The notes beneath the pieces were generated by a model. That model was not told the DNA's origin, ran no database searches, and saw only the letters and a list, made by a program, of their open reading frames with translations. DNA of 64,000 nucleotides from a virus. Positions 40,617 to 62,597 of this stretch are shown piece after piece; position 1 is the first letter of the stretch, and every line of letters starts with the position of its first letter. The stretch spans positions 62,001 to 126,000 of IMG/VR virus record IMGVR_UViG_3300049893_001984, one strand, 5' to 3'. The position numbers and the translations under genes are program-made.

Positions 40617-41153
40617 TCACGGAACATAATACGGACGTGGCTGCTGCGAAACCTCGTCATTGTACTTTTTGCCAGCTCTTTCAATTTCTTCCCACTCTCT
40701 GTTCTTCTTCTTCTGCTCGCGCAGATAGATCTCGAACATGTCGCACTCCATGGGAGACTTGCTCATGTCCAGCTTGTGAATGGGGTCTACGTGGATCTGA
40801 CCAAGACGATCGGCGGCACTTTTGGCTTTTGCTTCCGTGTCAAGGAACGAGAACGGAACGGGGCCAGAAATGGAAGCCGGTACAACTGGTCCAGGTCCTG
40901 AACTTTTCTTGAGGTTTGACACCCTCCACTCATGCCGACCGCTGTCGATGTCCAAGAGGGCGCATACCTGGTTCCACGGATCAAATCCAGTGAATCCAGT
41001 TATCTTGGCTCTCAATCCAACGTATTGATCCATGTCCTGACTCCAGTGGTCTGAACTTGGGTCGGTTGGATCAATTTGAATGTGCTTGCTGGCGATTACT
41101 TCCTCGCCAACATTAAACCCAGCGTAATTCTTTATGCTTGTCCAACTAGCCAT
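40617..41153 (-). CDS. Unknown protein
   Basis: A 178-residue protein. The start at 41153 (MASWTSIKNYAGFNVGEEV) has GAGGAG upstream and lies just after a terminator hairpin; the longer frame to 41273 would run through that hairpin and is rejected. Residues 30-90 look like a small beta domain (YVGLRAKITGFTGFDPWNQV). The C-terminal 70 residues are helical and charged (FEIYLREQKKKNREWEEIER). No family recognised. Confidence 0.7.
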   Translation of the reverse strand: MASWTSIKNYAGFNVGEEVIASKHIQIDPTDPSSDHWSQDMDQYVGLRAKITGFTGFDPWNQVCALLDIDSGRHEWRVSNLKKSSGPGPVVPASISGPVPFSFLDTEAKAKSAADRLGQIHVDPIHKLDMSKSPMECDMFEIYLREQKKKNREWEEIERAGKKYNDEVSQQPRPYYVP

Positions 41154-41164
41154 TTTCTCCTCAA

Positions 41165-41530
41165 AGCAAAACCCCGAGTGAGAGGCTCGGGGTTTATCTT
41201 TTGATGCCGAGCAGACTCCTGGCGCTGCTCGTGCCCGCCTGTCTACAGGCTTCCGTCGTTGTAAGGCCGCCACTCCTCTAAGTGACGAATTAATTTATGG
41301 GTTTGGAGTCTACCACATAAGAACAAGCGTGGTAGACCCCAAACGAGGTGGAGGTCAGAGTTAGCTTTACAGATTGAGAAAAAGCTTTGCCAGAGGTGTC
41401 ACGAGTTCCCTTTACGCCCTAAGTGGCTGCAGCAGCCAAGCGTACTTAGCGGGTATAGTGTGAACCTTGGTCTAGGCTGTTAGTCATTGTATTTCTACAA
41501 TCACGCTTGTGTATAACTAACTCGCACCCC
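41165..41530 (-). ncRNA. Candidate structured non-coding RNA
   Basis: A gene-free stretch with many self-complementary segments, read on the minus strand. From its 5' side: GTTAGT/ACTAAC (41516-41521 with 41479-41484) encloses a hairpin ATTGTA-GAAA-TACAAT with a GNRA-type loop (41486-41501). CTAAGT/ACTTAG (41444-41449 with 41419-41424) encloses GGCTG/CAGCC. AGCTTT/AAAGCT (41381-41386 with 41363-41368). A 16-position stem with one mismatch and a 12-base loop (41329-41344 with 41301-41316). GCCTGT/ACAGGC (41237-41250). GAGCAG/CTGCTC (41209-41230). It ends at a rho-independent terminator (41169-41195). The exact 5' end and a promoter are not seen. No tRNA, tmRNA or RNase P pattern fits. It lies between the genes at 41537 and 41153. 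Function unknown. Confidence 0.6.
41169..41195 (-). terminator. Rho-independent terminator at the end of the structured RNA region
   Basis: A 10-pair stem (41169-41178 with 41186-41195, 7-base loop) followed on the minus strand by TTTTGCTTTG. It directly precedes the ribosome site of the gene starting at 41153. Confidence 0.85.
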
Positions 41531-41536
41531 ACACCT

Positions 41537-42046
41537 TTACTCTTCCTTCGGGAAGTGCTCTTCAGTCAAGAAGGGCACTTCGATTTCGTTATTGTTTGCC
41601 TCAGCAATAGCCGAGCGAAGTTTACCTGCAAACTTAGCTGCGCTAGTTGCTTTTGAAAGTACTACTTGGTTATGAACCTTCTGAACAGCCGCTACTTCTC
41701 CAGCCGACCTGTAGGTTGAGTAATGGTCTCTTTTTCCTTTTATTACGGTTCTCCACAGCTTTTCAAGCCGACCTGCGCCGCCGATCAACTTAACAGCCTC
41801 AGCCAAAGAGCCAGAACTAAGCCCTTCAACCTTTACCTGCACTTGTAGGTTGAACAGCGACTGAGCGGTCTGCAACAGTGCAATGTTCCTCTCGCACACC
41901 TCAACCTCCTTGAAGAATAAAAGAGGGTCGCCGTGGTCTTCGTCCGCGAAAGAAACTATGGACTGGGTGAAGCCATTGGTAGCTGCTGTTTTACGCAGCT
42001 CCCAAACCCGTATGCCTTCACGTAGTTTGTATCCTGTGACTTTCAA
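41537..42046 (-). CDS. Unknown protein
   Basis: A 169-residue protein. The start is TTG at 42046, 4 bases after GGAGGT. N-terminal TGYKLREGIRVWELRKTAATN and a helical, charged middle (LLQTAQSLFNLQVQVKVEGL), with a C-terminal Ala/Lys helix. It resembles the KLREA-type hypothetical proteins of large phages, but I cannot name a family. It sits upstream of the structured RNA region. Confidence 0.68.
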   Translation of the reverse strand: MKVTGYKLREGIRVWELRKTAATNGFTQSIVSFADEDHGDPLLFFKEVEVCERNIALLQTAQSLFNLQVQVKVEGLSSGSLAEAVKLIGGAGRLEKLWRTVIKGKRDHYSTYRSAGEVAAVQKVHNQVVLSKATSAAKFAGKLRSAIAEANNNEIEVPFLTEEHFPKEE

Positions 42047-60434: not shown

Positions 60435-60520
60435 CGCTACACCCCCTCCCATCCTCGCTTAGACTAAAAGTCTAACTCGGTTGTGTACCACAAACTTAAC
60501 GATTGCTCTTTGCTTTAGAA

Positions 60521-60556
60521 AGCAGGGTTGGCGGCCGGTATGCTGCCAACCCTGCT
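60521..60556 (-). terminator. Hairpin, possible terminator
   Basis: A 12-pair stem (60521-60532 with 60545-60556) in the 155-base gap between the genes at 60590 and 60434. The following minus-strand T's are few (TTCTAAAG), so it may be a terminator or an attenuator. A second small hairpin TTAGACT/AGTCTAA (60459-60475) lies just upstream of the 60434 start. Confidence 0.55.
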
Positions 60557-60589
60557 TCATAGGCAGCAGACCTAGCCATGTTTACCCCA

Positions 60590-60823
60590 TCATCCCCGGA
60601 CGAGTTTCTTCCAGAACGCACCATTAGGAGCGTAGACTTGCTCGAACAGCGACAGATCCACAAGACATTGCGGGATTGACACCGACATCGTCCCGTCTTC
60701 CTTAACCGTTACAAACAAGTGTGCCCTTGAGTTGCGAGGCAGAACCTCGTAGGTTCCTGGGGCGAGTTTACTCACGTCTACTGGACGATGAGTTTGACCT
60801 CGCCCTGCTTTCCGTCTATCCAT
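60590..60823 (-). CDS. Unknown small protein
   Basis: A 77-residue protein starting at ATG 60823 (MDRRKAGRGQTHRPVDVSKL) behind TTAGGAGG. It has a basic start and then YEVLPRNSRAHLFVTV-type beta structure. No family recognised. It follows the larger gene by 8 bases. Confidence 0.65.
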   Translation of the reverse strand: MDRRKAGRGQTHRPVDVSKLAPGTYEVLPRNSRAHLFVTVKEDGTMSVSIPQCLVDLSLFEQVYAPNGAFWKKLVRG

Positions 60824-60831
60824 GTTTCCTC

Positions 60832-62102: not shown

Positions 62103-62597
62103 TTACTGTTCCCCCGAGGTGGTTATCTCTTGCAGTGAGGGCACCCCCCTCACGTAATTAGCGTAAAGTTTTACGGCTCTTAACTTCGCTTTTTCCCATA
62201 TATGATTACTTTTTGTAGGCATGCCAGAAGCCGTAACAAAATAGGGGAACGCTCTTCCTGTTTTTGGACAGGAGGAGTACGTTCCCCAGTAATCAAGCGC
62301 GTCTTTAAGACTTCCGTACACAAACACTAGAATAAGAATATTTACACATGTACGCCAAACCGCCGCCTCTAGCCTTACAGCGTTGTATCTGTTCCACAGG
62401 GGGTGGCGAGGGCATATGTGTTTAAACTTTAAAACGCTTCCATTTACCTGCTTTATAACTTCGCCTTTACTGTTATTACTGATGTCCCTCACAAACTGTT
62501 CTGCTAGGGACTGATGCCGCATAGCTTTCAAAACCATCACATCTATGTCCTTCTCCGACACTTGGGTTTTGAGAGCCTTCTCCATGTCGGCTTTCAA
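62103..62597 (-). CDS. Unknown protein, paralog of the gene at 57708
   Basis: A 164-residue protein. The start is probably TTG at 62597, behind GAGGAGGGG; ATG at 62585 is an alternative. Middle segment (ICPRHPLWNRYNAVRLEAA, NILILVFVYGSL, FPYFVTASGMPT, YANYVRGVPSL) resembles the protein at 57708, but the C-terminal zinc ribbon of that protein is missing. It overlaps the end of the HNH gene by 122 bases. Function unknown. Confidence 0.66.
   Translation of the reverse strand: MKADMEKALKTQVSEKDIDVMVLKAMRHQSLAEQFVRDISNNSKGEVIKQVNGSVLKFKHICPRHPLWNRYNAVRLEAAVWRTCVNILILVFVYGSLKDALDYWGTYSSCPKTGRAFPYFVTASGMPTKSNHIWEKAKLRAVKLYANYVRGVPSLQEITTSGEQ

What the first reader, a model, noticed from the sequence alone, without database searches (positions are those of the whole stretch)
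41165..41530. A gene-free 383-base stretch full of hairpins, ending in its own terminator
At least six stem-loops on the minus strand, including a 15-of-16-pair helix, a GNRA-loop hairpin inside a closing stem, and a CTAAGT/ACTTAG stem enclosing a second, lead to a rho-independent terminator. In a genome where genes overlap, this much non-coding, self-complementary DNA is a strong sign of a functional RNA. It does not fit tRNA, tmRNA or RNase P by eye. It could be a novel phage RNA (compare the large ornate phage RNAs such as GOLLD and ROOL).
Basis: partly seen in the sequence, partly recalled or inferred. Interest (0 to 1): 0.75.

Follow-up and report, generated by a model that had tools for sequence, protein, structure and literature searches.

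The report
Orphan structured RNA in large phage
A large bacterial virus carries a roughly 370-base gene-free stretch that would fold into an elaborate RNA ending in its own transcription stop; it matches no known RNA family, and one distant phage keeps a shorter similar element after the same gene, so it is probably a new phage RNA of still unknown job.

Summary
Window 41154-41536 (383 b, minus strand) has no credible gene and folds far better than shuffled sequence (MFE -145.5 kcal/mol, z -6.6; z -5.4 without the terminator). It contains a 23-pair closing helix around a GNRA hairpin and a branched arm, then a separate hairpin of about 17 pairs, smaller hairpins and a rho-independent terminator just before the next gene's Shine-Dalgarno. 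Nothing in Rfam matches; GOLLD and ROOL are not supported. The upstream gene (MKVTGYKLRE..., 169 aa) has one relative in IMG/VR (194-kb phage, 35% aa identity). There too the gene is followed by noncoding DNA with a closing helix, a GNRA hairpin 11 nt before ACAGCC, and a terminator. Covariance models built from either RNA alone pick the other as best hit in the syntenic 800 b (E 0.009 and 0.0005), but the first is not significant across the whole 64-kb window. The downstream genes are unrelated. Best reading: a structured RNA co-transcribed with the upstream gene, forming a stable terminated 3' UTR or a processed trans-acting RNA. With only two members, covariation cannot be shown; no transcript data exist. 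Function is unknown.

The parts
41154..41536 (-). noncoding interval holding the whole candidate RNA
   Evidence: no credible ORF; z -6.3 to -6.6
41346..41536 (-). domain A: multibranched domain closed by helix P1 (41510-41536 with 41346-41371, 23 pairs in the MFE)
   Evidence: recognised end to end by a model built only from the other phage
41486..41501 (-). P2: GAAA-loop hairpin AUUGUA-GAAA-UACAAU inside P1; the loop is followed, 11 nt on, by ACAGCC (41475-41480)
   Evidence: the relative has GAGA in the same place
41390..41470 (-). P3: branched arm with the UGGCUG/CAGCCA hairpin; CUAAGU/ACUUAG is an alternative stem
41301..41344 (-). hairpin B: about 17-pair stem, 10-nt loop (15 of 16 perfect core); not found in the relative
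41202..41290 (-). two or three small hairpins (UCGUCACUU/GAGUGGCGG, GCCUG/CAGGC, CGAGCAG/CUGCUCG)
   Evidence: z -4.7 for 41202-41345 without the terminator
41169..41195 (-). rho-independent terminator AAACCCCGAG...CUCGGGGUUU then UUGCUUU; symmetrical, so it also scores on the + strand
41537..42046 (-). upstream gene, 169 aa, MKVTGYKLRE..., unknown function; the conserved neighbour
   Evidence: relative in L002
40617..41153 (-). downstream gene, 178 aa, unknown, Shine-Dalgarno GAGGAG just after the terminator; no relative found

Best explanation
The stretch encodes a structured noncoding RNA of about 340-370 nt, read on the minus strand together with the upstream MKVTGYKLRE gene and ended by its own rho-independent terminator. 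The long closing helix begins at the first base after the stop codon, so the RNA most likely forms the 3' end of the upstream operon transcript and is either kept as a protective, terminating 3' UTR or cut free to act in trans, perhaps as the RNA partner of the neighbouring protein or of a host target. Shown: gene-free, unusually strong predicted fold, terminator, same arrangement after the same gene in one distant phage. Inferred: transcription, processing, stability, partner and target.
For: z -6.6 for the RNA strand, still -5.4 without the terminator; top-ranked of 11 gaps in the window. Closing helix of 23 pairs, 0 of 300 shuffles. The only relative of the upstream gene (L002) is also followed directly by a noncoding structured stretch with GNRA hairpin, ACAGCC and a terminator. 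Model R1 from L002 alone hits window 41347-41536(-) end to end as its best match in 801 b (8.4 bits, E 0.009), the bounds predicted independently from the window fold; model R2 from the window alone hits L002 from 4525 as its best match (13.3 bits, E 0.0005). In IMG/VR, of 45 exact matches to the shared spacing pattern only the relative is noncoding and forms the hairpin; none of the 80 listed in GTDB contigs does. No strong promoter-like site was found at the RNA's 5' end, in keeping with co-transcription. Precedent: phage PhiKZ makes an ~100-nt RNA from the 3' UTR of PHIKZ298 whose second stem-loop may be the gene's terminator (PMC8545117).
Against: Only two members, about 35% identical in the neighbouring protein and not significantly alike in plain sequence. 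The CM matches are significant only in the syntenic interval: across the whole 64-kb window R1's hit ranks tenth with E 0.73, and R2 with default filters found nothing in the whole relative. The relative's fold is only moderately special (z -2.3 without terminator, closing helix reached by 24 of 300 shuffles), and its closing helix has two competing versions. The relative lacks hairpin B. No transcript data. The best long cousin phage (G015, 57 of 249 proteins shared) has neither gene nor RNA.
Confidence: 0.58

Rival explanations
1. It is a cis-acting leader (riboswitch or attenuator) of the downstream 178-aa gene: the terminator stops transcription before the gene unless the upstream structure changes.
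For: The terminator sits just before the Shine-Dalgarno and ATG in both phages. By eye, GCUCGG in the 3' arm of the last hairpin can pair with CCGAGC in the terminator's 5' arm (6 bp), a possible antiterminator (sequence).
Against: Downstream genes of the two phages are unrelated, while the upstream gene is the conserved one. A 6-bp match over so short a distance is not rare. No riboswitch family matches.
Confidence: 0.2
2. It is a non-functional spacer or relic: a real terminator plus DNA that folds well by chance, and the resemblance to L002 is over-read.
For: Whole-window CM search is not significant; plain alignment is no better than shuffles; some DNA that reads as coding folds as strongly.
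Against: z -5.4 without the terminator and 0 of 300 shuffles for the closing helix; reciprocal best hits in the syntenic interval; 383 b without a gene in the middle of a tightly packed same-strand gene cluster.
Confidence: 0.17
3. It is a DNA-level element (origin, packaging or protein-binding site) whose inverted repeats matter as DNA.
For: Perfectly paired arms and a symmetrical terminator also fold on the + strand.
Against: The minus strand folds clearly better, as expected with GU pairs and GNRA loops in an RNA; the element is in the middle of a same-strand gene cluster and ends in a terminator; no direct repeats.
Confidence: 0.05

Closest known systems
PhiKZ 3'-UTR RNA of PHIKZ298 (PMC8545117)
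   Same: large-phage RNA downstream of a gene whose last stem-loop may be the gene's terminator
   Different: about 100 nt and two stem-loops there; 340-370 nt and multibranched here; no transcript evidence here
GOLLD RNA
   Same: large structured phage/prophage RNA of unknown function
   Different: GOLLD members often exceed 800 nt and lie near tRNA islands (PMC12286853); no Rfam match and no tRNA in this window
ROOL RNA
   Same: structured phage RNA, no known protein partner
   Different: no Rfam match; not near tRNAs; nothing suggests the ROOL fold
terminator-type riboswitches and attenuators
   Same: structured RNA with a terminator just before a start codon
   Different: conserved neighbour is upstream, not downstream; no known aptamer matches

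Membership tests
GOLLD / ROOL | match to the Rfam covariance models | tested here: not met
   no match at gathering score anywhere in the window, none of these families at E up to 10
GOLLD / ROOL | encoded near tRNA islands (typical, per PMC12286853) | tested here: not met
   0 tRNAs in the 64-kb window; only two scattered tRNAs in the rest of the 192-kb record
GOLLD / ROOL | homo-oligomeric RNA cage | not testable with these tools
   needs cryo-EM or native gel
tRNA / tmRNA / RNase P | ARAGORN or Rfam match | tested here: not met
group I intron and other ribozymes | Rfam match, split host gene | tested here: not met
   flanking genes are separate and complete. A group I intron elsewhere in the same phage was found by the same search
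riboswitch / attenuator | known aptamer match | tested here: not met
riboswitch / attenuator | conserved association with the downstream gene | tested here: not met
   downstream proteins unrelated; based on two loci only
phage 3'-UTR-derived noncoding RNA | located after a gene and ended by a terminator | tested here: met
   same in L002
phage 3'-UTR-derived noncoding RNA | discrete stable RNA in infected cells | not testable with these tools
   no transcriptome for this metagenomic phage
conserved structured RNA | compensatory base changes across homologues | tested here: inconclusive
   only two loci, alignment of the closing helix ambiguous

The most novel reading that the evidence does not exclude
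A new family of phage ribonucleoprotein: the RNA works in trans together with the MKVTGYKLRE protein encoded just before it, the pair being inherited as a unit by otherwise distant large phages while everything downstream changes.
Probability: 0.14. Interest if true: 0.7.

Novelty: new member of a known kind. Interest (0 to 1): 0.42.

Why it matters
Few noncoding RNAs of phages are known (a 2021 paper counts 21, PMC8545117), and some large multibranched ones have turned out to be unusual RNA-only assemblies (PMC12286853). If real, this is an Rfam-absent RNA linked to a protein family that none of the searched libraries covers, giving a concrete pair to test.

Tried and rejected
Rfam at gathering score and at E up to 10: only weak sub-threshold hits, the best of which rest on the terminator. 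blastn against phage records: seven weak Flavobacterium phage hits, E 0.1, confined to the terminator end of the query. Relatives of the upstream protein in phages, plasmids, IMG/VR and GTDB: only L002; weak StxB profile hits of one member (E about 0.01) taken as chance and not pursued. L004 was a chance match of the degenerate start pattern. Relatives by portal (L005-L019) and by the B12 ribonucleotide reductase (80 loci): none carries the gene or the RNA; a 23-nt match in L008 lies inside an open frame that looks like an intein. AlphaFold of the upstream protein: pLDDT 39, unusable. A 9-nt complementarity between the P1-P2 junction and the loop of hairpin B could be a pseudoknot, but 13% of shuffled loops do as well. 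No phage promoter motif emerged.

Full report
Setting. The window is bases 62001-126000 of a 192,334-b virus record, a large phage with a portal protein, tail fibres, a B12-dependent ribonucleotide reductase and a GT25 glycosyltransferase. Its nearest long relative found is a 207,857-b record (G015) sharing 57 of 249 predicted proteins, mostly at about 25-56% identity.

Observation. Between the stop of a 169-aa gene (41537-42046, minus) and the ATG of a 178-aa gene (40617-41153, minus) lie 383 bases without a credible gene. On the minus strand 41165-41536 folds at -145.5 kcal/mol, z -6.59, no shuffle of 100 as good; the plus strand gives z -3.1. It is the most structured of 11 gaps examined in the window, and the signal remains without the terminator (z -5.44). 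As a caution, a stretch of another phage that reads as protein-coding gives z about -9 to -10, so z alone does not prove an RNA.

Anatomy, 5' to 3' on the minus strand. Domain A (41536-41346) is closed by helix P1: AGGUG, GGGGU, GAGUUAGUU and UACA pair with UGUA, AGCUAACUC, ACCUC and CACCU, mean pair probabilities 0.94 or more; 0 of 300 shuffles of the domain pair their ends as fully (bounds chosen after seeing the fold). Inside are P2, a hairpin with a GAAA loop, then the unpaired or weakly paired ACAGCC, then a branched arm P3. After domain A come hairpin B (15 of 16 perfect), small hairpins, and the terminator at 41169-41195, followed by GAGGAG and the next ATG.

Relatives. The upstream protein has a single relative in IMG/VR, in a 194-kb record, 35% identical over the alignment, and none in phage or plasmid records or GTDB contigs. 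After that gene too lies a noncoding stretch (L002:4520-4753) with a fold of z -3.2 with its terminator and -2.3 without, an 11-pair hairpin with a GAGA loop, ACAGCC exactly 11 nt after the loop as in the window, and a terminator just before the next gene. Plain sequence alignment is not better than shuffles. I therefore built covariance models from each sequence alone. The model of the relative finds the window domain end to end (41347-41536 minus) as its best match in 801 bases, 8.4 bits, E 0.009; its bounds are those predicted from the window's own fold. The model of the window finds the relative's RNA from its first base, 13.3 bits, E 0.0005. Both are local tests with roughly calibrated E-values: in the whole 64-kb window the first hit has E 0.73 and ranks tenth, and with default filters the second finds nothing in the whole relative. 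The two models also disagree on the 3' half of the closing helix in the relative, where two versions compete. So homology is probable rather than proven, and covariation cannot be judged.

A pattern made of the shared spacing (AGGTG, GCGAG, GNRA, 11 nt, ACAGCC) has 45 exact matches in IMG/VR; only the known relative is noncoding and forms the hairpin. The pattern was derived from the two sequences, so this shows rarity, not significance.

What it is. The conserved neighbour is the upstream gene; the downstream genes are unrelated. The closing helix starts right after the stop codon, and no strong promoter-like site was found. That argues for an RNA made as the end of the upstream transcript, kept as a terminating 3' UTR or cut free, over a leader of the downstream gene. 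PhiKZ offers a smaller precedent (PMC8545117). An attenuator remains possible because a 6-base antiterminator pairing can be drawn. GOLLD and ROOL, which lie near tRNA islands and in the case of GOLLD often exceed 800 nt (PMC12286853), are not supported.

Verdict. A real, well-structured, Rfam-absent candidate RNA with one probable distant homologue; function unknown. Interest is moderate: it is a new orphan of a known kind until transcripts or more homologues appear.

Noticed in passing
G000:160990-161446 (L048:15989-16445, minus), outside the window: Group I intron (RF00028, 65.3 bits) about 0.8 kb past a predicted gene (158346-160157) whose relative in G001 lies at a terminase-like gene.
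   Followed up: no
window 62103-62475 and 60463-60831: Two other gaps of about 370 b with raised folding (z about -4.4 to -5.8 on + for the first, about -3.6 on both strands for the second); no Rfam match.
   Followed up: partly
L023, L030, L032 (record G015): The 208-kb cousin phage carries 38 predicted tRNA genes, a wide set, whereas G000 has only two and none in the window.
   Followed up: no
L039:2788-2942 (record G001): Predicted tRNAs with a four-base anticodon (ctta) and with anticodon cta (would read UAG), side by side.
   Followed up: no
L008:1-1100: Open frame upstream of the portal gene that looks like an intein.
   Followed up: no
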